Shown here: positions 4,849 through 38,065 of the stretch, piece by piece
Layout of the letters: each line of letters opens with the position of its first letter
Numbering within the stretch: position 1 is the stretch's first letter
Notes under the pieces: generated by a model
The model's database searches: none
Seen by the model: only the letters and a program-made list of their open reading frames with translations
What the model was told of the DNA's origin: nothing
NCBI RefSeq assembly: GCF_902506195.1
Contig: NZ_LR732817.1
Span: 2,140,985 to 2,204,984, forward strand
Direction: 5' to 3'
DNA: 64,000 nucleotides
Origin: Citricoccus sp. K5
Lineage (GTDB): Bacteria > Actinomycetota > Actinomycetes > Actinomycetales > Micrococcaceae
Program-made: the position numbers and the translations under genes

Positions 4849-4856
4849 CCCTATGC
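4849..4856 (-). promoter_or_regulatory. GCATAGGG motif upstream of fliM
   Basis: On the minus strand GCATAGGG lies 43 bases before the fliM ATG, and AAACG occurs 23 bases further upstream at the end of motB. The same octamer precedes flgD, flgB and the sigma-like operon, always in the direction of transcription. It may be a -10 element or an activator site of an unknown factor; this is inference. The AAACG here is part of the motB stop region and could be chance. Confidence 0.4.
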
Positions 4857-4876
4857 CGAGGTCCGGAGGCCGGCCG

Positions 4877-5689
4877 TCACGTTTCGTCGCTGTCCGGATC
4901 TTCCGGCGCGGCCGCGCCGGAGGCGCCGGCTCCCGCGTCGTCCTGTGTCTGCACCACGATGTCCACGCGCCGATTCCGGTCCAGCATGTCCCGCTGCCCT
5001 TCGATCGGCCGTGTGGAGCCGAACCCCGTGGCCGAGGCCTTCTCCCCTGAGAATCCCTGGGCGTCCACCATGTGCCGCACCACCTGCACCGCGCGGTCGG
5101 CCGAGAGCTCCCAGTTGGTCTCATAGTTCAGCGGCTGGCGGTAGTCGGCATGACCCTCCACGGCCACGCTCCCTCCCTCGGCCTCGACCACCGGGGTGAT
5201 ACCGGCCAGCAGGTCGGTGGCGGAGTCGGACAGGCTCGCGTCATCCGGGTTGAACATGGTCTCGCCGGAGAGGATGCGGATCACCAGGGCTCCGTTCACG
5301 TGGGTGAACTCCACGGCCGATTCCTGGCCGGTGCGCGTGAGGTTGGCCTGCACGCCGGCCTGGATGTCCTCGAGCTTCTCCGCTGCTGTCTGCGGTGGCT
5401 GGGGTTCGGCCACCTCGCCGGAGGACTCCACGGCGTCCACGGCCTCGGGTCCGGGCTCCAACGCCTCGATCCCGGAGTTGAGGTCGTTCAGCTCGCTCTC
5501 CTCCTGGCCGAAGCCCTGGGCGAGGGAGTTCTTGAGCTGTTCGTACTTTCCCGCGTCGATCGAGGACATGGAGAACAGCACCACGAAGGTCAGGAACAGC
5601 ACGGTCATCATGTCCAGGTAGGACACGGCCCAGCGTTCGTCCATCTCGGGGGCGTGGGGCGCCCCCTTCCCCTTGCGTCGGCGGGACAT
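4877..5689 (-). CDS. motB: Flagellar motor stator protein MotB
   Basis: A 270-residue stator subunit. One N-terminal membrane helix contains the essential proton-binding Asp (YLDMMTVLFLTF, about D26). A linker and a C-terminal OmpA-like peptidoglycan-binding domain (about residues 145-255) follow, with VEGHAD and the NRRVDI signature. MotB anchors the MotA/MotB channel to the cell wall and converts ion flow into torque. The DMMT context is typical of proton-driven MotB. It directly abuts motA with no gap. No fliL follows it, although fliL usually lies here. Confidence 0.95.
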   Translation of the reverse strand: MSRRRKGKGAPHAPEMDERWAVSYLDMMTVLFLTFVVLFSMSSIDAGKYEQLKNSLAQGFGQEESELNDLNSGIEALEPGPEAVDAVESSGEVAEPQPPQTAAEKLEDIQAGVQANLTRTGQESAVEFTHVNGALVIRILSGETMFNPDDASLSDSATDLLAGITPVVEAEGGSVAVEGHADYRQPLNYETNWELSADRAVQVVRHMVDAQGFSGEKASATGFGSTRPIEGQRDMLDRNRRVDIVVQTQDDAGAGASGAAAPEDPDSDET

Positions 5690-8718: not shown

Positions 8719-8726
8719 CCCTATGC
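8719..8726 (-). promoter_or_regulatory. GCATAGGG motif upstream of flgD
   Basis: An exact minus-strand GCATAGGG in the short gap between the fliK stop (8740) and the flgD start (8671), 48 bases before the ATG. This distance resembles that at fliM. No AAACG partner is found at the 21-23 base spacing seen at the other sites, so the proposed upstream element is absent or different here. Confidence 0.4.
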
Positions 8727-8739
8727 GTCGGGATCCGGT

Positions 8740-10068
8740 TCAGGCGTAGACATCGAGCCCGCCCGTCCCGTCATCCGGTCCAGCGTCCGGCCCGGTGCCG
8801 GCGGTGGGGGGTTCTGCGGGGTCGGCACCGGGGACGGTGGCCCCGCCGTGGGTGTTCCCGACGCCGTCGCCCTCCTGGTCCTTCCCGTCGCCGCCGCGGC
8901 CCCCGGGTGACGGCCCAGTTCCCGGTCCGGCGGCGTTCGCATCGCGGTGCCCGGAGGAACCACCGGACAGGTCCAGGGTTGCGCCCGCCTGGGCTCCGGC
9001 CAGTTCCCGGCGCAATTCGCCCAGGACGGCGCGCAGATTCTCCCGCCCTGCCTCGGTGGCCGCCGTCATCTCCAATCGCACGACGCCGTCCCGGCTGATG
9101 GCCTCGATGGTCACCGGGCCCAAGGCCTCGGGACTGATGCGGACCGTGGCCAGGTGGGTGCCGTTCGGCAGGCTGACCGCCCGTCCGGCGGCCTGCACCA
9201 CGGGGGTGGAGAGCTGCTGGACCGTCCACGCGCGCACGGCCGGGGTCGGCGTGGCCCCCGCAGAAGAGGGAGGGGGAACCACGACGGCGGCCGGGGAGCC
9301 CGCGGCGGCCGGGATGGTGGCGGCCGGGATGGTGGCGGCCGGGATGGTGGCGGCCACGGGAGGCAATCCTGCCGCCGCCGTGCCGGTCAACGAGGAAGAC
9401 GAAGAGGAGACGTGGGACCCCGTCTGCACCGCCGACGGCTGGGACGCATGGGCCGGGTTCTGCAGCGGATTGAACACCATGCTGGAGGCGTTCTGGGTGC
9501 TGGTGACGATGACGCCGTTCGCCACCGCGGCAGTGCCAGCGCCGGTGAATGTGGCCATAGCACCGACCTCAGCCCCGGCGGCGGGCCCGGGAACACCGGT
9601 ACTGGCATCGGCATCGGCATCGGCATCGGAGGATTCCGGCTCGACGGCGTGGACCGTCTCCGCTGTGGCGTCAACGCTGGTTTCCGCGCTGCCCTCAATC
9701 CTGGCCCCGGCAGGCGCGCCGGCCTGAGCATCATGACCCTGGCCGGCCTCGTCCGTGGAGCGCAAACCGTCCAGGGAGATGGGCCGTGAGTACTCCTGGC
9801 CTGTGCGTTCCGGGGTGTAGCCCGGCGGCAGGACGGAGGCGGCGTCGGTGCCCTCACCGGCTCCTGCGGAGGTCCGGTCAGCCGTGCTGCCGGAGGCGTC
9901 ACGCAGGTGGTCCGCGAAGCGGGGCCCGGAGGCGCCAGCGCTGGCCGAGCCCGCGGAACCGGCACCGCCGGAGCGGGAGCCGGCGGAGCTGGATCCGGCA
10001 CCGGACAGCGAGCGGGACGGATCCGGCGTCGGGCCGGGGATCAGTGAGTTCAGCGGTGAGCCGATCAT
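8740..10068 (-). CDS. fliK: Flagellar hook-length control protein FliK
   Basis: A 442-residue protein with the FliK layout: a long low-complexity Ala/Ser/Thr/Pro region and a compact C-terminal Flg_hook domain (about residues 300-390) with LATVRISPEALGPVTIEAI and RENLRAVLGELRREL. FliK measures hook length and triggers the FlhB switch. The ATG at 10068 overlaps the upstream NlpC/P60 stop as ATGA, which fixes the start. The ruler region contains a 15-bp tandem repeat and a GGCATC hexamer run, both potentially length-variable. Confidence 0.9.
   Translation of the reverse strand: MIGSPLNSLIPGPTPDPSRSLSGAGSSSAGSRSGGAGSAGSASAGASGPRFADHLRDASGSTADRTSAGAGEGTDAASVLPPGYTPERTGQEYSRPISLDGLRSTDEAGQGHDAQAGAPAGARIEGSAETSVDATAETVHAVEPESSDADADADASTGVPGPAAGAEVGAMATFTGAGTAAVANGVIVTSTQNASSMVFNPLQNPAHASQPSAVQTGSHVSSSSSSLTGTAAAGLPPVAATIPAATIPAATIPAAAGSPAAVVVPPPSSAGATPTPAVRAWTVQQLSTPVVQAAGRAVSLPNGTHLATVRISPEALGPVTIEAISRDGVVRLEMTAATEAGRENLRAVLGELRRELAGAQAGATLDLSGGSSGHRDANAAGPGTGPSPGGRGGDGKDQEGDGVGNTHGGATVPGADPAEPPTAGTGPDAGPDDGTGGLDVYA
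9306..9350. repeat. 15-bp tandem repeat (3 units) inside fliK
   Basis: CGGCCGGGATGGTGG is repeated three times without change and keeps the reading frame. It encodes an (IPAAT)n run in the flexible part of FliK. Unit-number change would lengthen or shorten the protein in steps of five residues. Confidence 0.85.
9604..9627. repeat. GGCATC hexamer run (4 units) inside fliK
   Basis: Four perfect GGCATC units encode an Asp-Ala repeat in the low-complexity region of FliK. The run is in frame and is a second place where slippage could change protein length. Confidence 0.7.
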
Positions 10069-17242: not shown

Positions 17243-17250
17243 CCCTATGC
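17243..17250 (-). promoter_or_regulatory. GCATAGGG motif upstream of flgB
   Basis: An exact minus-strand GCATAGGG with AAACG 22 bases upstream, 133 bases before the flgB ATG, in the 238-base gap between the FliT-position gene and flgB. This is a good candidate for the promoter or activator site of the main flagellar operon. Nothing else was recognised in this gap. Confidence 0.45.
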
Positions 17251-17348
17251 GGGCAGATGCGGGGTGGGTGTGCGTTTTGCGTTGAGGACGCCTCGTCCAG
17301 GATCAGGACAGGTGCCGGAGCACGACGCCGGCCGGTTCCGACGCGCGG

Positions 17349-20615: not shown

Positions 20616-20643
20616 TTATCGGCACGCTCCGGAAGTTTTTTCA
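20616..20643 (-). promoter_or_regulatory. FliA (sigma-28)-type promoter of fliC
   Basis: The minus strand reads TGAAA, a 16-base spacer, then CCGATAA (with GCCGATAAG extended), the best match of the four late promoters in the window to the sigma-28 consensus. It lies about 70 bases upstream of the flagellin start codon. Confidence 0.85.
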
Positions 20644-23609: not shown

Positions 23610-24434
23610 CTAGGCGAAACGGCGGAACTGCGGCGATGGAGGCGTTGGTTGTGTCCGAGAGGCCTGCGGCACGATCCCGCCCCGCATCGCCCCGCCGGCG
23701 GCAGCCAGGAATTGCTCCCGCCCGGCGGCCGGGACACTCACAGCCACCGGAGCGGCCGGGGTGACGGACAGCGCCGAGCCGAGTACATCCTGCAGCAGAG
23801 CCAGCCCACGTTTCTTCTCCTTGGACACGGTGGCGTCCGAGACGCCCAGGGCCGCGGCCACCTCACCCTGAGCCAGTCCCTGGAAGTAGTGCATCTGGAC
23901 CACTTGGCGCGTCCGCTCCGGCAGGGCCTCAACGGCGCGATGCAGCAGCAGGTTCTTCTCCGCGTTGAGCACCTGCTTCTCGGGGCTGTCCTCCGGGGAA
24001 GCCAGGACCTCACTCAAGGAGTCGTCCAGGGAGGTCTGGGTCTTGGACCCCTCGGCCACCATGGTCCGCAGTACCTCCACCGGGACCCCCAGGGCCACCG
24101 CCAGCTCGGAATCCTCGGGCATCCGCCCCAGGGAATGGGTCAGCTGCGCACGGGCTTTCTCCAGCCGCTTGGCCTTGTCCCGCCCGCGGCGTCCCATCCA
24201 GTCGAGTTGCTGCAGGAACTCCTGGATGGCCCACCGGATTTTGAGGTGGGCCCACGTGGAGAACTGGGTGCCGGCGTCGGGATCCCAGGTGCCCGCGGCG
24301 AGGACGAGGCCCTCGAGGCCCACCGAGACCATCTCATCCCGCTCCACCATGGGGTATTTGTGGTGCATCTCGGACACCGCGTAGCCGACCAGAGGGATGT
24401 TCTGTTCCACCAGGTCGTTCCGTGCTGTTCTCAT
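23610..24434 (-). CDS. fliA: Flagellar sigma factor FliA (sigma-28)
   Basis: A 274-residue sigma factor of the FliA/WhiG type. Region 2 (LVEQNIPLVGYAVSEM; GTQFSTWAHLKIRWAIQEFLQQLDW), region 3 (LTHSLGRMPEDSELAVALGV) and region 4 (LPERTRQVVQMHYFQGLAQGEVAAALGVSDATVSK) are complete. A Pro/Ala-rich extension of about 55 residues follows region 4, longer than usual. GGAGGG precedes the ATG. It is divergent from flgN-flgK-flgL and should read the four TGAAA-N16/17-CCGATRA promoters in the window. No anti-sigma FlgM was recognised here. Confidence 0.93.
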   Translation of the reverse strand: MRTARNDLVEQNIPLVGYAVSEMHHKYPMVERDEMVSVGLEGLVLAAGTWDPDAGTQFSTWAHLKIRWAIQEFLQQLDWMGRRGRDKAKRLEKARAQLTHSLGRMPEDSELAVALGVPVEVLRTMVAEGSKTQTSLDDSLSEVLASPEDSPEKQVLNAEKNLLLHRAVEALPERTRQVVQMHYFQGLAQGEVAAALGVSDATVSKEKKRGLALLQDVLGSALSVTPAAPVAVSVPAAGREQFLAAAGGAMRGGIVPQASRTQPTPPSPQFRRFA

Positions 24435-24622: not shown

Positions 24623-25111
24623 ATGCAAGCAGATGAGCTGTCCAACGAGCTGTGGCGCGAGCGCGGCATCCTGGAGAACCTGCTGTACAAATTCACCACG
24701 CAGCGTCTGCTCGTCACCAACGGCGAATCTCGATGGCTGGGCCGTTGCACGTCCGAGATCGAGTCGTTGAAGAACCAGCTCTCCACCACGCAGTTGACCG
24801 TGGACGTGCTCTCCTCCTCGCTCGCGCAGCTGTGGGGCATGACCAGCGAGGGCTCCCCCACCCTGCGCGAGCTTGTGGCCGGCGCCCCCGCCGACGGGCC
24901 GTGGGCCGGGATCCTCCAGGACCACCATGCGGCCATCGTGAACTTGGCCGAGGAGATCCGCACCGTCTCCGAGGAGAATGCCCGCTTCCTCAAGGCCGCC
25001 AACATCTCCCTGCAGGAGGCTGGACAGCAGACCGGTCCCGCCGTCACCTACACGGCCGCCGGCTCCGCCACCCCGACCTCGGGCGCCGCCATCATCGACC
25101 GCCAGGGCTGA
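24623..25111 (+). CDS. flgN: FlgN-family chaperone for hook-filament junction proteins
   Basis: A 162-residue helical protein with an FlgN-like N-terminus (LSNELWRERGILENLLYKFTTQRLLV) and a second long helix (IVNLAEEIRTVSEENARFLKAANISLQEA). FlgN chaperones FlgK and FlgL, which are encoded immediately downstream. The ATG at 24623 is chosen because AAAGG sits 7 bases upstream; in-frame starts at 24608 and 24617 have poorer spacing. Family identity is weak by sequence but strong by position. Confidence 0.82.
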   Translation: MQADELSNELWRERGILENLLYKFTTQRLLVTNGESRWLGRCTSEIESLKNQLSTTQLTVDVLSSSLAQLWGMTSEGSPTLRELVAGAPADGPWAGILQDHHAAIVNLAEEIRTVSEENARFLKAANISLQEAGQQTGPAVTYTAAGSATPTSGAAIIDRQG

Positions 25112-25131
25112 ACGGCAGGCATAGGACAAAC

Positions 25132-27598: not shown

Positions 27599-28912
27599 TC
27601 ACACCGCGCGGAGGTGACGCTCCCCTCTCAGGGAACCGGCCGGCGTCGCGCCCGGGGTTCCGGAGCTGACTGCGGCTGCCGAGCCACCGATCTCAACGCC
27701 CGCGCCGAGAATGCCGCGGATGAGGCCGTCCAGGCGGTCCCGCACCTCTTGGTGGGTGGCGCCGAGCGGTGCCTCCGGGAAGCGGACCATCGCCTGATAG
27801 GCGTCCCACGCGCCGGCCAGTGTCTGTTCACGCTCGGCCAGTTTGTCCTCGTGAGTGGCGGCCCCGGCGGTGTCGAAGGCGGAGAAGGCCTCGAACTCCT
27901 CGGCCAGGAACGCGTCCACCACGGCGTTGACGACGGTGCGCCAGCCGGCGGGCTTGCGGCCGTTCTTGAGCACCGGCGAGAATTCCTTGACGGCTGCGCG
28001 GAAGGCCCGCACCGAGGGGCGGTCCGGACGGGCGCGGTCCGCCAATGCCTCCACGGCCAGAGTGTGCGCGATCGCCCGGTCACGGGAGACCAGCTCGAAC
28101 AGCTGGGCCTTGGAGTAGTCGTCCCACAGGGCCATCAGATCCTGATCAGCGTGGTCGAACATGCCCTGCCAGCCGTGGATGCGGTTCAGGCACGCGAGCA
28201 TGGCCTGCGCGGAGCGGTGCGCGGCCTTGGGGTCGGATTCGAGCAGAGGCAGGGCGCGACGCCGGATGCGCACCTCGGGGCGGATCGGTTCCGGCAGATT
28301 GAAGGCGAACCTCAGGGCGGCCGAGCCGGCCGCGGTGCGGGCGATGCCGCGGTGGTGCGAGGCCTTGGAACGCAGCCACTCAGTGGCCTCCTCGAGCATC
28401 ATGCGCTGGGCGAGACCGGCGTCTTCCGTGCCGAGCCCGTCCACGCCGGCTCCAGGGGCCGTGGCCTGGGTGAAGGCGTGTGCGGCAGCGGTGTGCCGAC
28501 CGTCCTCCGCACCGGTGGGAGCCACGAGTTCCTGGCGGGCCGCCGTACGGTTGTGGATGTTGCGCAGCACCGACTTGCGGGTGGCGCGCAGGGTCTGGCG
28601 TGCCCATCCCGTCACCGAGGCGCCGCGGGCACGCTCAAGGTCGAAGAACGCCTCCGGCCCCTCCTCCGTGATGCGGCGGAACAGGAATTCATCGAACTCC
28701 GCAGCAACATCCTGACTCAGCTGGGGCCCGGAGGCCAGCCCGTAATGCCAGGTCTGGTACTCCCGGGCGACCTCATGGGAGATGCCGGATCCGGTGAGGA
28801 CCCCGGCGATCTCCTGACGGGCCTGGCGTTCGCTCAGGCGGCCGGCGGCCCATCGGTCGATGAGGTCACGGCACGCGGAATCGGTCTGAAGGTTCTCTGC
28901 TCGCACGAACAA
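27599..28912 (-). CDS. Unknown sigma-factor-like protein C
   Basis: A 437-residue, helix-rich, soluble protein of no family I recognise. Residues about 73-130 (FDEFLFRRITEEGPEAFFDL, then VTGWARQTLRATRKSVLRN) resemble the FD-x-x-rG-x-x-F-x-x-WA/lR pattern of sigma-70 region 2; the rest is Ala/Arg-rich helix without a clear region 4. The start is TTG at 28912 or GTG at 28906, neither with a good ribosome site. It lies 76 bases after protein B's gene in the same direction and has its own candidate promoter and a CRP-type palindrome in that gap. It is convergent with flgL. A transcription role in motility is inference. Confidence 0.65.
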   Translation of the reverse strand: MFVRAENLQTDSACRDLIDRWAAGRLSERQARQEIAGVLTGSGISHEVAREYQTWHYGLASGPQLSQDVAAEFDEFLFRRITEEGPEAFFDLERARGASVTGWARQTLRATRKSVLRNIHNRTAARQELVAPTGAEDGRHTAAAHAFTQATAPGAGVDGLGTEDAGLAQRMMLEEATEWLRSKASHHRGIARTAAGSAALRFAFNLPEPIRPEVRIRRRALPLLESDPKAAHRSAQAMLACLNRIHGWQGMFDHADQDLMALWDDYSKAQLFELVSRDRAIAHTLAVEALADRARPDRPSVRAFRAAVKEFSPVLKNGRKPAGWRTVVNAVVDAFLAEEFEAFSAFDTAGAATHEDKLAEREQTLAGAWDAYQAMVRFPEAPLGATHQEVRDRLDGLIRGILGAGVEIGGSAAAVSSGTPGATPAGSLRGERHLRAV

Positions 28913-28947
28913 GGTGTGTGCGGCACTTTTGTCTATTGCGTCCTCAT

Positions 28948-28970
28948 ATTATGTGACCTTTGTCACATTC
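28948..28970 (-). promoter_or_regulatory. AT-rich -10-like element (CATAAT) before sigma-like gene C
   Basis: In otherwise very GC-rich DNA, the 76-base gap holds CATAAT (28948-28953, minus strand) with a TTCGAG-like -35 about 16 bases upstream. It overlaps the edge of the CRP-type palindrome, so that factor could block or adjust this promoter. Confidence 0.4.
28952..28967. promoter_or_regulatory. CRP/GlxR-type operator TGTGAC-N4-GTCACA
   Basis: A perfect 16-bp dyad TGTGACCTTTGTCACA matches the established CRP/GlxR consensus TGTGA-N6-TCACA. It sits in the gap upstream of sigma-like gene C, overlapping the -10-like element. This suggests cAMP- or GlxR-type control of that gene. Confidence 0.7.
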
Positions 28971-28988
28971 TCGAAGCGCAAAGGAAGG

Positions 28989-29978
28989 TCAGGCGTGGTG
29001 AATGCCGAGCTGCTCCGCCAGCACGCGCTGGGCCAACGTGCGGACCTTGCGGATCTGCGCGGCAGCCGAGGCCTGCGGCAGGCCCAACTGTTCGGCCACC
29101 TCGTGCGCGGTCAGCACCCGCTGGTCCCCCTCGGAGTCATAGACGCCGGACAGCCAGCAGGCGGCGACGTCGGCCGTCACCCCGCCTATCACCCTCGCCT
29201 TGGCAACCACGGCCGCCACGAGCCGCGGGCCCTCCGTCGCGTGCAGCAGCCCGCCCTCGGGCGTCATGGCGGCCAACTCGAGATCGTGGATGTCCGCGGC
29301 GGGCCGGGCGAGGTTCAGCTCGCCCGCATGGACGAGCATGCCCTGCTTGGCGGCGTCCTTGCGAGTGGCGGTCATGCGGCGATTGTGCTCGGACGCCACC
29401 TCACGATCGCTTGGTTCGAGGCCTGAGGCGGCGCGCATCTCGTCCCGCAGCTGGTTCAGCTGGCGCACTCGGCGGCTCAGCGAGATCATCCCGGATGCGG
29501 GTGAGAGGTTGCGGTCCGCCCAGGCGCGCACCGTGGCGCGTGCCCGCACATGGAGTAGGCCCTCCCAATTGGTGATCTCCTCGATCCGCGCCGGGGTGGC
29601 GACCAGTTCCTCCACGAAGGTCACGGCCTCCATGGCCACGAGCTGCTCCACATCCTCGCGGTGCGTGGCGTAGGGCATCCCGAGGGTGCGGCACAGGCGG
29701 TGGGCCACCAGGCGGTAAAGCTTGCGGCGGGAGGCGATGAAGTCATCCCGGAGGGCGGTACGCTCCCGTGCGGACACCGCACCGGCGATGACCCGGATCT
29801 GGTCCAAGGCGGAAACCTCAAGGACGGCCTCGAGGCCCGCCGCAGTCGCGCCAGCCTCCACGGACGCGGCCAAGACCGTCAGCGGAGCGGTGCTCGCCAG
29901 CGTCGTGATCAGGTCGGGCTTCAACTGAGTGGCACCGCCAGGGGAAACGGTGCGTTGAGAGGTGCAGACAGTGGTCAA
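28989..29978 (-). CDS. Divergent sigma-70-like protein B
   Basis: A 329-residue protein with recognisable sigma-70 architecture. A region 2-like part (about residues 83-160) holds FIASRRKLYRLVAHRLCRTLG and WEGLLHVRARATVRAWADRN. The region 3-like part (about 165-205) holds LSRRVRQLNQLRDEMRAASG and LEPSDREVASEHNRRM. A C-terminal helix-turn-helix (about 288-325) is LTAHEVAEQLGLPQASAAAQI. It is not a standard SigA, SigB, FliA or ECF factor. The TTG start overlaps the stop of protein A's gene as TTGA, so the two are coupled. Whether it binds core RNA polymerase cannot be told from sequence. Confidence 0.7.
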   Translation of the reverse strand: MTTVCTSQRTVSPGGATQLKPDLITTLASTAPLTVLAASVEAGATAAGLEAVLEVSALDQIRVIAGAVSARERTALRDDFIASRRKLYRLVAHRLCRTLGMPYATHREDVEQLVAMEAVTFVEELVATPARIEEITNWEGLLHVRARATVRAWADRNLSPASGMISLSRRVRQLNQLRDEMRAASGLEPSDREVASEHNRRMTATRKDAAKQGMLVHAGELNLARPAADIHDLELAAMTPEGGLLHATEGPRLVAAVVAKARVIGGVTADVAACWLSGVYDSEGDQRVLTAHEVAEQLGLPQASAAAQIRKVRTLAQRVLAEQLGIHHA

Positions 29979-31039
29979 CGGGCGCCCCTGTTCGTCTCCG
30001 GGTCGATCAACACGGACCGGGCCATCGGGTCGGACCCGACATTCAGGGCCGCCTGGGCCCGAGCCGTGGACAGCTTGTCCTGCGGGTGTTCGAGGCGGTA
30101 CGCCGCCACGATCTCGTCCACCGTGGCTCCCGTCATATGGGCGGCCACGCGGCGGACCTTGGGGCCGATCCGGGGGTCGCCGATGGCACGGCGGATGTGG
30201 TCCTCGGCGTCACGGCGCAGATTGCGGCTCAGGTACATGAGCGGGTCCACCTTCGCGAAGCGATCAGGACGCAGACACTGCTCCAACAGACGCGACACAC
30301 TGGCACCATCAGTTGAATCCATCGACGTATCCCCTAGCATCATGGCGTTCACCACCTGTTCGATCCCGGTCTCGTGCAGCACAGACTGGACCCGGCCGGT
30401 GAGCTCGCCGATCTCATGGCTCACTGCTGAGTGAGCCTTGTGAACGGTGGCAGTGACGAACGGTTCGAGACTGAACAGCAATTGCCACTGGGATTGACGG
30501 CCTGCGCGCACGATGTCCTGGAGACCGTCGACGGTGTAGCGGTGGATCCCGGGGGCGGAATAGTTACCGTCAGAAACTATAGCGTTCAAGCTCGTGACAC
30601 GCGAGGAATTTTTCGCCCGCTGAGAAATGTTCGGCGGACGTTCATGCAGGTGGGCCACCTCACCCGAGTCGGTCCAACCCATCGAGTGGGCCGTCCACTG
30701 GTACGGACGTTCTGGTCCATCTGCCCCCTCTAACCGGACCAGGGCGTCGTTTCCGCCCCAGTCCAGCCGAACGGGCATGAGCAGAGCCTGACCGGACTCG
30801 TGGTCCCGTCCCTTCCGACCGATGTCCATGGCGGGCATGCGCCAGTCCCAGGCCGGCAGCAGGGTCACGGCGCGCGGACCGGTCGGGGTGGTGGATCCGG
30901 ACACCAGCAGCTCTTCTGCCGCCCTCCCCCAGAGGATCGATTCGAGGCGGGAACACAGGGAGTCGAGCGTCGGATGACGGCGCGGGGCACTCTCACCCGC
31001 CTCTGGAGCTCCTGCTCGCTCTGCCTGTGTCTCAGCCAT
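29975..31039 (-). CDS. Unknown sigma-factor-like protein A
   Basis: A 354-residue protein. The N-terminal half (about 1-180) is unlike anything I recognise. The C-terminal half resembles sigma region 2 and a following helix-turn-helix: QWQLLFSLEPFVTATVHKAH (about 184-203), DPLMYLSRNLRRDAEDHIRR (about 265-284, like the YL-x-R-x-x-R-D-x-R core) and VRRVAAHMTGATVDEIVAAY (about 295-315). The ATG at 31039 is chosen; upstream in-frame ATG codons add an Arg-rich stretch. A GCATAGGG motif lies only 6 bases before this ATG, so the mRNA could be leaderless. Translation is coupled to protein B's gene. Confidence 0.62.
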   Translation of the reverse strand: MAETQAERAGAPEAGESAPRRHPTLDSLCSRLESILWGRAAEELLVSGSTTPTGPRAVTLLPAWDWRMPAMDIGRKGRDHESGQALLMPVRLDWGGNDALVRLEGADGPERPYQWTAHSMGWTDSGEVAHLHERPPNISQRAKNSSRVTSLNAIVSDGNYSAPGIHRYTVDGLQDIVRAGRQSQWQLLFSLEPFVTATVHKAHSAVSHEIGELTGRVQSVLHETGIEQVVNAMMLGDTSMDSTDGASVSRLLEQCLRPDRFAKVDPLMYLSRNLRRDAEDHIRRAIGDPRIGPKVRRVAAHMTGATVDEIVAAYRLEHPQDKLSTARAQAALNVGSDPMARSVLIDPETNRGAR

Positions 31040-31044
31040 GCCAG

Positions 31045-31052
31045 CCCTATGC
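31045..31052 (-). promoter_or_regulatory. GCATAGGG motif upstream of sigma-like operon
   Basis: An exact minus-strand GCATAGGG with AAACG (31074-31078) 21 bases upstream, the same pairing as at flgB (22) and fliM (23). It ends 6 bases before the chosen start of sigma-like gene A, which fits a -10 element of a leaderless transcript. It would imply shared control, or self-control, of this operon and the early flagellar operons. Confidence 0.45.
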
Positions 31053-31260
31053 ACAAGACGACGCCCCGGCGGTCGTTTGACGCATAGGCCCTTCATGCCC
31101 CGACGCACCCCACCACCTGCTTGGACCAGACGGTCGGGGCGGCGGTACCCGACCGTTACGGGAGTGCCCGCCATGTCCCTCGCTGCGGCGTACTACAGAG
31201 TAAACTTGACACATACAGCAATCCCCTGCTGCGGAAGGCACCTGCAACAGAAGAGAGTGG

Positions 31261-31908
31261 GTGGAAGTATTGCCGATTCGTGACGCCGTCTCCCGGTGGA
31301 CCATCACCCGATGCGATCCACTCGTGGTGCATGCCTACCGTGAGGCAGCCGATGAGGAGCTGCGCTCTACGTCCGCTGATTTTCCCGAGTGGTTCGCCCT
31401 CTGGGCCTCGGGCGTCCTGGCCGACCTGGTCGAGACCCTCGATCCGGAGGACCCGTGGCGCAACACCACCGTCAACGGCGCCGGCGCGGTCGTCCTGCCC
31501 GATGGTTCGGCCTTCGGGACCTGGCACAACGCGACCGACCTCCTGCCGTTACCCGCGGAAGGCGACCCGGCGCTGGATGTGGGGCTGGCCGCCGTCGCGC
31601 AGCCCCTCTCCTCGGAGTCCGCGCTCCTGTGGCATGCGGCCCAGATCGGCCGCGAGAAAGCCCTTGAACAGCTGCTGACGATCGAGATGGGCGGTGCCTA
31701 CCCCGTGGCCGCGCCGGCGATTGAGCGGGCGATGTTCCGCCGCCGCGTGTTCATGGGCCAGGAAGACGCTTACATCCCGCAGGTCTGCACCGACTGGTCC
31801 CTGCGGGCGGACCGGATCTCCGCCGGCGAGCCCTGGGACGAGGCCGGTGCCGCGCGCCTGCGCGCCGGGTCCCGCGTGGAGCCCGGAAGCTGGCGCCTCC
31901 TCGCCTGA
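31261..31908 (+). CDS. Hypothetical protein
   Basis: A 215-residue soluble, acidic protein that I do not recognise. It begins VLPIRDAVSRWTITRCDPLVVHAY and contains a Trp-rich segment (FPEWFALWASGVLADLVETLDPEDPW) and FRRRVFMGQEDAYIPQVC near the C-terminus. No membrane segment or signal peptide is seen. The GTG start at 31261 has a weak GAGAG ribosome site. It is divergent from the sigma-like operon (221-base gap that also holds an AT-rich TTGACA at 31206) and convergent with the histidine kinase across a 66-bp palindrome. Confidence 0.7.
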   Translation: MEVLPIRDAVSRWTITRCDPLVVHAYREAADEELRSTSADFPEWFALWASGVLADLVETLDPEDPWRNTTVNGAGAVVLPDGSAFGTWHNATDLLPLPAEGDPALDVGLAAVAQPLSSESALLWHAAQIGREKALEQLLTIEMGGAYPVAAPAIERAMFRRRVFMGQEDAYIPQVCTDWSLRADRISAGEPWDEAGAARLRAGSRVEPGSWRLLA

Positions 31909-35313: not shown

Positions 35314-35853
35314 ATGAAGAAGATGACCAAGGGTGCACTCGTCACCGGCCTGGGCGTGGCCCTCCTCCTCGGCGGCGGCGGCACCCTCGCCGTCTGGAAC
35401 GTCGAGCAGACCGCCAATGCCGGGACCATGGCCGCCGGCAGCATGGAGCTCACCTCGAGCACGGGCGTCTGGACCTCCAACCTCTCCACCGAGCCGATCT
35501 CCGACATCACCGAATACCGCATCGTCCCGGGCGAGGAACTCACCTACACGCAGCAACTTGAGGTCGGGCTGGAGGGTGACCAACTGGAGGCCACCCTGTC
35601 CGTCGACACCACCGGCGTCACCAACGGCTTCTCCAACAACCTGGCTCTGGAGGACTTCACCGTCACCAAGGCCGGGGCCGCCGACGCTGCCATCACGGGC
35701 TACAACGGCTCGGCCGATGTGGAGACCGGCGCGTACACGGCCTCCGCCACCCTGGCCTTCAACGCCGACAATCAGGAGGACATGAACCAGGAGCTGGACC
35801 TGACCCACGTCGCCTACGTCCTGGACCAGAAGGCCCCGACGCCCGCCACCTGA
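35314..35853 (+). CDS. Alternate-signal (SipW-type) exported protein 1
   Basis: A 179-residue secreted protein. The N-terminus is a basic KKMTKGALVTGLG, a Gly-rich hydrophobic core, then LAVWNVEQTANAGTM, the W-N and G-T pattern of the alternate signal peptides processed by SipW-like peptidases (TasA-type). The mature part is Thr/Glu/Asp-rich with an SGVWTSNL-like and YTQQLEVGLEGDQLEATL beta-strand pattern and may build surface fibres. AAGGGG lies 8 bases before the ATG. It is the first gene of an operon with a second such protein and the peptidase. Confidence 0.82.
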   Translation: MKKMTKGALVTGLGVALLLGGGGTLAVWNVEQTANAGTMAAGSMELTSSTGVWTSNLSTEPISDITEYRIVPGEELTYTQQLEVGLEGDQLEATLSVDTTGVTNGFSNNLALEDFTVTKAGAADAAITGYNGSADVETGAYTASATLAFNADNQEDMNQELDLTHVAYVLDQKAPTPAT

Positions 35854-35953
35854 TCCGCTCCGGTCCGTACCGTCCCGACCCCACGCAGCGGGTGACCGCC
35901 CCCGGTCCACCCGTGGTCCGCTACCGCCGCTCTCTAACACCTGAGGAGATGAC

Positions 35954-36508
35954 ATGCGCATCAAGACCATGGTGCAGACTGCTGCAGTCATCTCTCTGGC
36001 GGCGGTGGCGGGCCTGCTGGGGGTCGGAGGCACCTGGGCCCTGTGGAACGCCTCCGCTCCGGCGCAGATGGGCACCGTCCAGGCCGCGGACTTCCGGGTC
36101 ACGGTCAACGGATCGCCGTTGGCATCCCAGGGTGTGACGGCCACCGCGAAGCCCGAGACCTCGGGCGCGGCCCTGACGCCGAAGACTCCGGTCTACTCGA
36201 TCATCGCGATCACCAACGCCACCAATGCCAGCGGACCCTTCTCCCTGCGAACGGTCCTGGGGCAACCGACGACGTCCAACACTCCAGCTGCCCTGGCCTC
36301 GAATCTGACCATTCAGACGGCATCCATGCCGGCCTCCAACAAGTGCGCCGACGCCAGCTACACCGCGACTCCAACGGCCACCACCATCACCAAGGGCGCC
36401 ACCGCGAGCCTGTGCCTCCGGATGAGCCTTCCGCAGAACGCACCCGACACCCTGACGCAGACCGCCGCCACCGTGGCCGTACCGGTGACCGCCACCCAAA
36501 TCCAGTAA
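35954..36508 (+). CDS. Alternate-signal (SipW-type) exported protein 2
   Basis: A 184-residue secreted protein with an N-terminal hydrophobic segment (MVQTAAVISLAAVAGLLGVG) followed by GTWALWNASAPAQMGTV, the same A-L-W-N ... G-T cleavage context as protein 1. The mature part is Thr/Ala/Ser-rich, with two Cys that could form a disulfide (SNKCADASY; ASLCLRM). It lies 100 bases after protein 1 and 10 bases before the signal peptidase gene. A structural surface or fibre role is inferred from the TasA-like context. Confidence 0.8.
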   Translation: MRIKTMVQTAAVISLAAVAGLLGVGGTWALWNASAPAQMGTVQAADFRVTVNGSPLASQGVTATAKPETSGAALTPKTPVYSIIAITNATNASGPFSLRTVLGQPTTSNTPAALASNLTIQTASMPASNKCADASYTATPTATTITKGATASLCLRMSLPQNAPDTLTQTAATVAVPVTATQIQ

Positions 36509-36518
36509 GGAACAGGAC

Positions 36519-37208
36519 ATGAGCATGCACCGCCAGCAGCGCCGACGTATCCCCTCCTGGATGGGTTGGACTGGACAGGCCATCTCCTTCATCGCACTGT
36601 GTGTCTCCGCACTGGCGGCAATCGTCCTGATCATCGTCCCGCTCGTCACCGGTTCCCAGACATACTCCGTGCTGACCAGTTCGATGGCACCCGGCTATCC
36701 TCCGGGCACCTTCCTGGTCGTCAAGCCGACCGATTTCGACTCCCTGCAGACCGGCGATGTCATCACCTACCAGATGGAGTCCGGCCGTCCGGAGGTCATC
36801 ACTCACCGCATCACCTCCCTCACGGCCAGCCAGGACGGTGAGCGCATGCTGATCACCCAGGGGGACCACAATGACGTGGCCGATGAGAACCCGGTCCTGG
36901 AAGTCCAGGTTCGCGGCAAGCTGTCCTACGCCGTGCCCTACGTCGGCTTCCTCGCCAACGCCCTCGGCAATTCGGATCGAGGCTCCGTCATCACGGTATT
37001 GGCCATCGGACTCTTAGCCTGGGGCGCGGTCACGATGATCCGCGGGGCCATCAAGGACGGCCGGGAAAAACGTGACCAGGAACTGATTGACACAGCGACC
37101 CAACTGGACACGGTCGCGGTCAGGAAAGCCGATCGGGCGGCGCCGGTGACGCTCGACCGGGACCACCGGAACGAAGGCAATGAGTTCTCAACCCAGGAGA
37201 ACCGATGA
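36519..37208 (+). CDS. sipW: SipW-type (ER-type) signal peptidase I
   Basis: A 229-residue membrane serine peptidase. An N-terminal helix (ISFIALCVSALAAIVLIIVPLV) precedes the active-site Ser in VLTSSMAPGYPPGT. The general base is His in VITHRITSL rather than Lys, as in eukaryote/archaea-type and SipW peptidases. A C-terminal membrane helix (VITVLAIGLLAWGAVTMI) and a charged tail follow. It should cleave the alternate signals of its three neighbours. It overlaps the next gene as ATGA. Confidence 0.9.
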   Translation: MSMHRQQRRRIPSWMGWTGQAISFIALCVSALAAIVLIIVPLVTGSQTYSVLTSSMAPGYPPGTFLVVKPTDFDSLQTGDVITYQMESGRPEVITHRITSLTASQDGERMLITQGDHNDVADENPVLEVQVRGKLSYAVPYVGFLANALGNSDRGSVITVLAIGLLAWGAVTMIRGAIKDGREKRDQELIDTATQLDTVAVRKADRAAPVTLDRDHRNEGNEFSTQENR

Positions 37209-38065
37209 CCCGCAGGATGTGGTGCATCTCCGTCGCGGTGTTCCTGACGGTGTTCCTCGGTGGACTCGGCGTCGCCGGGGCGGCAGCCCTGTGGTCGCAG
37301 TCGGGAACCGTGTCGTCTCAGGTCACCACGGGCACGTGGGGCGCAGTCGAGGACGGTGGCGGCGACGCCACCGACGGCACCAGGCCCATGGGACTGGACC
37401 CCAGGCTGGCCTATTCCGAGCCGTCTGGCTCATTCCGTTACGACGGCCCAACGGGCCTCGGGTTCTGCCACGACTTCCGGATCACCAACACTTCCGATGA
37501 ACCCGTCACCTGGTCGGTCACCTTTGACACCAAGAAGGGTCCCTACTGGGGACTGAATCCGACCACGGTGAAGTCGAACGGAACGGGAACGCTACGGGGC
37601 TTCTGGGGAGGAGTGACCAGCGGCTTCGACTCCGCCACCGGACTCTGGACCATCGGCGGAGCCAACTACCAGCGGACACTCGCCGCCGGTGTTTCCGCAG
37701 ATGTCGGCTACTGCGCCAACCCGGCCATGCCCGCGGTCGACCCGACCGCCTATGCCGCCCCGAAGATCCGGGTGGATCCCAGCAGTAATTCCTACGGCGT
37801 CGCCTTGCGGGTACAGGTCACGTCCGGCTCGAGGTTCCAACTGCCGTGGGAGATTGACGTGGATCTGGCCGATCACGTCTGTGCATCGTCCCTTCCCACC
37901 AAGATCACCGCAGAGAACGCTGAGCTCGTCCGCATCAGCGGGACCCGGTACCGTCTCAGCGGCACCGGCGCATTTCGGCTCGTCGGCAATGGTCATTCTC
38001 AGGACTTCGTCTTCGCCCGATACAACCCCGGCGGGAAGCCGTTCCAAGGGGGCAGTTGCCCGTAA
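37205..38065 (+). CDS. Alternate-signal exported protein 3
   Basis: A 286-residue secreted protein. The N-terminal hydrophobic segment (MWCISVAVFLTVFLGGLGVAGAAALW) is followed by a G-T-W, similar to the SipW-type signals upstream. The mature part has a beta-rich domain with paired Cys (GLGFCHDFRITNTSDEPVTWSV to VGYCANP) that recalls carbohydrate-binding family-2 folds, though I cannot confirm this. Translation is coupled to sipW by ATGA overlap. It may be a minor surface or adhesion component. Confidence 0.78.
   Translation: MTRRMWCISVAVFLTVFLGGLGVAGAAALWSQSGTVSSQVTTGTWGAVEDGGGDATDGTRPMGLDPRLAYSEPSGSFRYDGPTGLGFCHDFRITNTSDEPVTWSVTFDTKKGPYWGLNPTTVKSNGTGTLRGFWGGVTSGFDSATGLWTIGGANYQRTLAAGVSADVGYCANPAMPAVDPTAYAAPKIRVDPSSNSYGVALRVQVTSGSRFQLPWEIDVDLADHVCASSLPTKITAENAELVRISGTRYRLSGTGAFRLVGNGHSQDFVFARYNPGGKPFQGGSCP

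What the first reader, a model, noticed from the sequence alone, without database searches (positions are those of the whole stretch)
27599..31039. Three-gene cluster of divergent sigma-factor-like proteins next to the flagellar genes
Genes A (354 aa) and B (329 aa) are coupled by a TTGA overlap, and gene C (437 aa) follows after 76 bases. Protein B has recognisable sigma region 2, 3 and 4 patterns but belongs to no standard group; A and C show region 2-like segments with otherwise unknown domains. A canonical FliA is encoded separately, so these are additional. Their place beside flgL and the shared GCATAGGG motif suggest a split or multi-subunit sigma-like activator of early flagellar genes. 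This is inference; they could also regulate something else.
Basis: partly seen in the sequence, partly recalled or inferred. Interest (0 to 1): 0.75.

Follow-up and report, generated by a model that had tools for sequence, protein, structure and literature searches.

The report
Sigma-factor module beside flagellar genes
The middle gene of this cluster encodes an unusual RNA-polymerase sigma factor whose relatives sit on giant plasmids with the same companion genes, and the DNA switch it probably reads lies in front of its own operon, of plasmid genes and, here, of early flagellar genes.

Summary
Gene B (28989-29978) is a divergent sigma-70 factor: its family profile aligns over regions 2, 3 and 4 with FliA/SigA-type factors (hhalign 72.7; 40 shuffles at most 20.1). 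A and C match no known family. A-B, usually with divergent neighbour D, is a conserved module; in 72,556 plasmid records A, B and C each hit the same 8 megaplasmids. It precedes the A-B operon at 17 of 24 loci, plasmid genes, four early flagellar operons here (flhA, fliM, flgD, flgB), and flhA and fliM on Curtobacterium megaplasmids. Upstream of flhA, GCATAG is in 4 of 5 module-linked clusters but 1 of 40 others. So a flagellar role is plausible here, but the module is not flagellar in general: 6 of 18 module-bearing genomes have FlhA, and two relatives without FlhA keep A, C and D constrained. "Multi-subunit sigma" is undecided. No experiment was done; that B itself reads the promoter is inference.

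The parts
29975..31039 (-). gene A (354 aa), unknown family, first gene of the operon here; start codon 5 nt after the -10 element
   Evidence: relatives; no credible Pfam/NCBIfam/PHROG match
28989..29978 (-). gene B (329 aa), divergent sigma-70 factor with regions 2, 3 and 4; the first ~57 residues are not conserved
27599..28912 (-). gene C (437 aa), unknown family, found on the same 8 megaplasmids as A and B; the start may be GTG at 28906 by comparison with relatives
31261..31908 (+). gene D (215 aa), unknown family, divergent from A; conserved with A-B in most lineages, not found on the Curtobacterium plasmids
31045..31084 (-). predicted promoter of A-B: -10 GCATAGGG at 31045-31052, -35 half at 31072-31084, N19 spacer
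4849..4888 (-). predicted promoter of the fliM operon (GACGAAACGTGAC-N19-GCATAGGG); orthologous site in Bu38
8719..8758 (-). predicted promoter of the flgD-flgE operon; weak orthologous site in Bu38 (score 13.1)
17243..17282 (-). predicted promoter of the flgB-fliF operon; orthologous site in Bu38
25087..25126 (+). possible promoter of flgK (GCATAGGA 5 nt before ATG); not conserved in Bu38
20616..20623 (-). GCCGATAA upstream of fliC: FliA-type -10 (consensus recalled) of the late class, for contrast; also present in Bu38
23610..24434 (-). FliA-type sigma factor

Best explanation
B is a dedicated alternative sigma factor encoded with partner proteins A, D and (in some lineages) C. With core RNA polymerase it reads promoters of the form AAA..GAC-N19-GCATAG[GA][GA], many of which would give leaderless mRNAs. 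It switches on its own operon (positive feedback) and a regulon: DNA-processing genes on actinobacterial megaplasmids, and in this Citricoccus/Micrococcus-type genome the early flagellar operons, while the ordinary FliA drives late genes such as fliC. A, C and D are most likely accessory or anti-sigma-type partners of B. Shown: B's sigma homology, the conserved module, and the promoter's architecture, placement and distribution. Inferred: that B reads this promoter, the feedback, the flagellar hierarchy and the roles of A, C and D.
For: B: hhalign of 16 B relatives against 27 sigma-70 sequences gives 72.7 over 215 columns (40 shuffles: mean 13.7, max 20.1; reversed 14.7); with 23 relatives 77.5 (30 shuffles: max 16.3). 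Pfam Sigma70_r3 in 13 of 16 members at E up to 0.1; the only PDB hit at E up to 1 is sigma-28 FliA, 1rp3, E 2.9e-4. Module: A, B and C each hit the same 8 of 72,556 plasmid records. Promoter: ACN19GCATAGG occurs 25 times genome-wide, 7 of 25 in the 33 kb from flhA to A (reversed-pattern control 11 in all). PWM hits: 0 in 198 kb of control loci against 5.7-9.5 per 100 kb in own, chromosomal-module, Micrococcaceae-plasmid and Curtobacterium-plasmid loci; these contain the training sites. In the Bu38 flagellar cluster, not used in training, the sites upstream of fliM, flgB and flgD recur. GCATAG 3-8 nt before a start: 61 in 742 kb of module loci, 2 in 357 kb of module-free loci. A-B operon motif at 17 of 24 loci. 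GCATAG upstream of flhA: 4 of 5 module-linked clusters, 1 of 40 others.
Against: No expression or binding data. The motif was first seen in this window and homologous sites are counted more than once, so counts are not independent. 7 of 24 A loci lack the operon motif; Bu38 flhA and flgK lack it. The PWM is not clean: 3 hits in 119 kb and 1 in 40 kb of flagellar regions not linked to the module, none upstream of a flagellar gene. On Curtobacterium plasmids the -35 half at flagellar sites is poor (only C's own site reaches score 13 in 100 kb). In one search some permuted hexamers score as high as GCATAG: maxima 9 (own, GCATAG 5), 5 (chromosomal, 4), 16 (Micrococcaceae plasmids, 19), 18 (Curtobacterium, 24), 13 (order loci, 9). 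G304 and G376, in which no A was found, carry well-scoring sites. The strict pattern matches 124 of 395 family genomes, much of it one recurring sequence (23S rRNA by recall). Of five plasmid helicase genes beside C, two lack the motif. Nothing shows that B rather than A, C, D or another regulator reads it.
Confidence: 0.72

Rival explanations
1. A, B and C together form a multi-subunit (split) sigma-like activator: A and/or C carry degenerate sigma domains and bind RNA polymerase or promoter DNA with B.
For: A and B lie next to each other, or with one small gene between, at the loci with both; all three are on the same 8 megaplasmids. The A family is B's best-ranked non-self match among 33 real families (25.8; next 22.1), over 130 columns; in one direction A-B scores 29.9 against a shuffle maximum of 18.2.
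Against: hhalign probability for A-B is 1.5-11 %; the other direction is 22.5 against a shuffle maximum of 21.3. With A as query the B family is not among its five best of the same 33 families (fifth: 17.6). A and C against sigma-70 are at or near controls. B already has regions 2, 3 and 4, so no split is needed. Structure models failed.
Confidence: 0.17
2. A is an anti-sigma or co-sigma switch protein (and D or the ParA-like ATPase a sensor) that holds B inactive until a signal, like other sigma/anti-sigma operons.
For: A-B gene order, here with overlapping genes, and conservation of D and, outside the Citricoccus-type loci, of a ParA-like ATPase gene in front of A.
Against: No similarity of A to a known anti-sigma factor; no direct evidence. 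A B paralogue stands without A in Bu38.
Confidence: 0.4
3. The cluster has nothing to do with flagella; its position beside flgL is accidental and GCATAGGG is read by something else.
For: 12 of 18 module-bearing genomes lack FlhA. Between two Citricoccus genomes without FlhA, A, C and D stay constrained (dN/dS 0.24, 0.26, 0.13) while the fliI remnant does much less so (0.72, CI 0.53-0.98).
Against: The same promoter lies on early flagellar operons here and in Bu38, and GCATAG on flhA (3 of 3) and fliM (2 of 2) of Curtobacterium megaplasmids, but upstream of flhA in only 1 of 40 clusters not linked to the module.
Confidence: 0.15

Closest known systems
SigN (ZpdN) of Bacillus subtilis plasmid pBS32 (PMC6751061; outline, abstract and section 7 read)
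   Same: Plasmid-encoded sigma factor with its own promoter consensus, activating its own gene and a plasmid regulon that includes genes listed as DNA Pol III and exonuclease
   Different: SigN is described as weakly homologous to ECF factors and its gene as LexA-repressed; B's family has a region-3 match, has partner genes A, D and C, and its predicted promoter also covers flagellar operons. SigN and B were not aligned here
FliA/WhiG (sigma-28) group
   Same: Closest profile match of B; regions 2, 3 and 4 in the same order; B's predicted promoter, like FliA's, belongs to flagellar genes in this genome
   Different: No FliA/WhiG model reports B; predicted -10 GCATAGGG instead of GCCGATAA; a FliA-type gene is present beside it; relatives live on plasmids and in genomes without FlhA
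SigO-RsoA split sigma factor of Bacillus subtilis (recalled; seen only in a search listing)
   Same: Idea of a sigma activity made by more than one small protein
   Different: B carries regions 2, 3 and 4 itself; no sigma domain is established in A or C

Membership tests
sigma-70 family (gene B) | homology to sigma-70 over regions 2, 3 and 4 in order | tested here: met
   score 72.7 over 215 columns (40 shuffles max 20.1); 77.5; only PDB hit is sigma-28
sigma-70 family (gene B) | single-sequence match above curated Pfam/NCBIfam cut-offs | tested here: not met
   window B reaches 12.8 bits for Sigma70_r3 (cut-off 25.3) and no NCBIfam model; this measures divergence from the models, not a biological property
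sigma-70 family (gene B) | binds core RNA polymerase and directs promoter-specific transcription | not testable with these tools
   only indirect: conserved two-part promoter linked to the module
FliA/WhiG subfamily | match to the FliA_WhiG model TIGR02479 | tested here: not met
   0 NCBIfam families for B at E up to 1
ECF sigma factors | no region 3 between regions 2 and 4 (recalled definition) | tested here: not met
   Sigma70_r3 in 13 of 16 B relatives, below cut-off in the window's B; alignment spans region 3
plasmid-encoded autoregulated sigma factor (SigN type) | encoded on a plasmid | tested here: inconclusive
   relatives on 8 megaplasmids; the window's own copy is on a 3.7-Mb contig, so chromosomal here
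plasmid-encoded autoregulated sigma factor (SigN type) | own promoter of the regulon type upstream of its operon | tested here: met
   window and 16 other loci, 17 of 24 examined; sequence prediction only
split sigma factor (SigO-RsoA type) | sigma regions divided over two polypeptides | tested here: not met
   B alone spans regions 2, 3 and 4; sigma likeness of A inconclusive

The most novel reading that the evidence does not exclude
A mobile transcription module (sigma B plus A, D, a ParA-like ATPase and C) of actinobacterial megaplasmids carries its own promoter language. It took over early flagellar operons when flagella travelled with it, so that a megaplasmid-derived multi-protein sigma system became the flagellar master regulator, with A a degenerate sigma-like partner of B.
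Probability: 0.22. Interest if true: 0.85.

Novelty: new variant of a known kind. Interest (0 to 1): 0.66.

Why it matters
How early flagellar genes are switched on in flagellated Actinobacteria outside the zoospore formers is, to my knowledge, largely open (recalled). This gives a concrete candidate with a written promoter that can be tested directly. It also points to a family of megaplasmid sigma factors with unknown conserved partner proteins, and to flagellar clusters that share a promoter type with a mobile element. That bears on the view that actinobacterial flagella were inherited vertically (PMC10746217; abstract and 12 passages seen).

Tried and rejected
Rejected: A and C as sigma proteins by sequence (A 18.9 against at most 19.0; C 20.9 against at most 19.1 over 30 columns; D 16.6 against at most 16.5; all with probability under 1 %). 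B was not folded. Weak family hits taken as chance: eL13 for A in the PDB search (E 0.0064), PKMT_2nd in 1 of 15 A members (0.069), DUF2518 in 1 of 12 C members (0.034). Viral relatives: B (plasmid version) in phage records and in viral contigs, none. The strict promoter pattern as a genome classifier: confounded by one sequence repeated in many genomes (23S rRNA by recall); the match list was cut. A shared origin of the Citricoccus-type and Curtobacterium flagella: FlhA alone groups them (0.927), but 13 concatenated flagellar proteins give 43 for that split (the 100 printed beside it belongs to window+Bu38 and was misplaced by re-rooting), so it is unresolved. Permuted-hexamer controls vary widely and overlap GCATAG in three groups, so I rely on the comparison with module-free loci. 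Literature: searches listed nothing that describes this system; listings only, except PMC6751061 (outline, abstract, section 7) and PMC10746217 (abstract, outline, 12 passages). On re-checking I lowered the split-sigma rival (0.20 to 0.17) and the novel case (0.25 to 0.22), because B is not among A's five best matches.
Full report
What is there. Minus strand: A 29975-31039, B 28989-29978, C 27599-28912, with the TTGA overlap of A and B and 76 bases between B and C. D (31261-31908) is divergent. Flagellar genes fill most of window 1-27526 and flhA lies just outside. The window is a stretch of a 3.7-Mb contig of a 3.88-Mb genome.

B is a sigma factor. Alone it matches models only weakly. Its family does better: Sigma70_r3 in 13 of 16 members and Sigma70_r4_2 in 6 of 16 at E up to 0.1, beside other helix-turn-helix families in up to 7 of 16. 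Its profile finds one PDB sequence at E up to 1, sigma-28 FliA, E 2.9e-4. It aligns collinearly with 27 FliA/SigA-type sequences over 215 columns, score 72.7, against 13.7 on average and 20.1 at most for 40 column shuffles. In the same test A scores 18.9 (at most 19.0 for shuffles), C 20.9 (19.1) and D 16.6 (16.5), all with probability under 1 %. With 23 relatives each, A and B show a weak collinear likeness: 29.9 in one direction (30 shuffles at most 18.2), 22.5 in the other (21.3). A is B's best non-self match among 33 real families, but B is not among A's five best. I call this suggestive only.

The module. In 72,556 plasmid records A, B and C each hit the same 8 records, of 375-608 kb, in Arthrobacter (2), Pseudarthrobacter (2), Paenarthrobacter (1) and Curtobacterium (3) (A and B asked with plasmid versions at E 1e-5, C with the window's protein at E 0.01). 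C's weakest hit is E 4e-3 over 66 % on D40; its place behind csrA, as on the other two Curtobacterium plasmids, supports it. D hits the 5 Micrococcaceae records. On those, A and B follow a ParA-like ATPase gene. On pACHL01, pPA-B-2242 and the A. caoxuetaonis plasmid they precede a large ATPase-like protein (sub-threshold matches; primase-helicase by my reading) and a PD-(D/E)XK nuclease gene; on pYJN5-1 a kinase gene intervenes. C lies about 11-13 kb away beside an ATP-binding protein and a helicase gene. On the three Curtobacterium plasmids C lies directly behind csrA at the end of a flagellar cluster, seen at full length on two, with A-B elsewhere. By profile, A is in 9 of 395 family genomes and in 10 of 337 order genomes, own included. 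In the 9 order-level stretches fetched, B was found in 7, D in 7 and C in none (L131 lacks B and D, L130 lacks D, L138 lacks B and is a short contig).

The promoter. Lining up GCATAGGG sites showed a second conserved part, AAA..GAC, whose C stands 19 nt before GCATAGGG. In many cases the start codon follows 5-7 nt after GCATAG[GA][GA], where the -10 of a leaderless transcript would lie. GCATAG 3-8 nt before a start codon of an ORF of at least 80 aa: own 5 in 94 kb (three look spurious to me), other chromosomal module loci 4 in 88 kb, Micrococcaceae megaplasmids 19 in 174 kb, Curtobacterium megaplasmids 24 in 181 kb, order-level loci 9 in 165 kb, G140/G154 0 in 40 kb, module-free loci 2 in 357 kb. 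The best of 13 permuted hexamers reaches 9, 5, 16, 18, 13, 3 and 24 in the same groups. The first gene of the A-B operon has GCATAG at 17 of 24 loci: 4 of 4 Citricoccus-type chromosomes, 6 of 6 Micrococcaceae plasmid loci, 3 of 3 Curtobacterium plasmids and 4 of 11 others. That first gene is A itself in the Citricoccus-type loci and an ATPase-like gene elsewhere; in some of the latter this rests on annotation or N-terminal likeness, since the Walker A search failed. On the Micrococcaceae plasmids the motif also precedes the large ATPase-like gene (6 of 6), the nuclease gene (5 of 5 seen) and the helicase gene beside C (3 of 5). Many of these loci are related, so the numbers are not independent events.

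The flagellar link. Here the -35/-10 promoter precedes fliM, flgD, flgB and flhA, by my reading the heads of the early operons. In Bu38 the sites at fliM (25.9), flgB (22.4) and flgD (13.1) are conserved; those at flhA and flgK are not. fliC has a FliA-type GCCGATAA in both genomes. On Curtobacterium plasmids GCATAG stands 5 nt before flhA (3 of 3) and fliM (2 of 2 examined), with poor -35 halves. In 601-nt regions upstream of flhA, GCATAG occurs in 4 of 5 module-linked clusters but in 1 of 40 other Micrococcaceae regions (38 without A, 2 with A on another contig; in 6 of the 40 my simple pattern did not find the FlhA start); by hand, Fisher p = 201/1,221,759, about 2e-4. The chromosomal flagellar stretches fetched from three module-plasmid hosts (119 kb, 3 PWM hits) and from one module-free genome (40 kb, 1 hit) have no site upstream of a flagellar gene.

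Not only flagellar. FlhA over the cut-off is present in 126 of 395 family genomes; 5 of the 9 with A have it. Of 9 order-level genomes with A, 1 has it. CH26A and WCRC_4 gave no FlhA (WCRC_4 is a 91 % complete MAG), and of the window's flagellar genes only fliI and fliJ were found beside C (fliJ cut by the contig end in WCRC_4). Between these two, dN/dS is 0.24 for A (95 % CI 0.13-0.41), 0.46 for B (0.32-0.71; 0.32 without the first 58 codons), 0.26 for C (0.15-0.42), 0.13 for D (0.04-0.28), and 0.72 for the fliI remnant (0.53-0.98). One pair of genomes only; but the module seems to have a use that outlives the flagellum.

Origin. In a tree of 13 concatenated flagellar proteins the window and Bu38 fall outside a group of four other Micrococcaceae (support 100) on a long branch. 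Their joining with the Curtobacterium plasmids has support 43 there and 0.927 with FlhA alone. Whether flagella and module travelled together is open.

Reading. The closest working analogue is SigN of pBS32: a plasmid sigma factor with positive feedback and a plasmid regulon (PMC6751061). The present system differs by conserved partners and by flagellar promoters.

Noticed in passing
L105 14166-43703 and L106 9756-38981 (Curtobacterium plasmids D40 and pS16): Apparently complete flagellar gene clusters lie on the 608- and 546-kb megaplasmids; in the main text of the actinobacterial flagella paper PMC10746217 the word plasmid does not occur.
   Followed up: partly
L018 9067-10083: Bu38 carries a second B gene (65% identical to the window's B) without A, C or D in 20 kb, beside what looks like a fructose-bisphosphate aldolase gene (by eye).
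   Followed up: no
L017 13768-15817 and L016 9074-11171: Two Citricoccus genomes without FlhA keep fliI and fliJ behind a promoter that resembles the flgB promoter, as if a deletion had joined it to fliI.
   Followed up: partly
L021 3708-8243: The large plasmid ATPase-like protein is 1511 aa instead of about 1050, with an insert in the P-loop region that looks like an intein (by eye).
   Followed up: no
window 35314-38065: Small secreted-protein genes with a SipW-like signal peptidase gene (TasA/camelysin-like by eye), also kept in Bu38 and CH26A.
   Followed up: no
L117 5451 and L118 7678: Well-scoring GCATAGGG promoters in two genomes (G304, G376) in which no A was found.
   Followed up: partly
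window 28913-28960 and L015, L017, L031, L043, L045, L046 upstream of C: A GCACACA(T)-type element lies just before C in several lineages, different from GCATAGGG; possibly a second promoter type.
   Followed up: no
L015 upstream of 15191 (flgN, minus strand): GCATAGGA about 100 nt upstream of flgN in Bu38, not scored as a promoter site.
   Followed up: no
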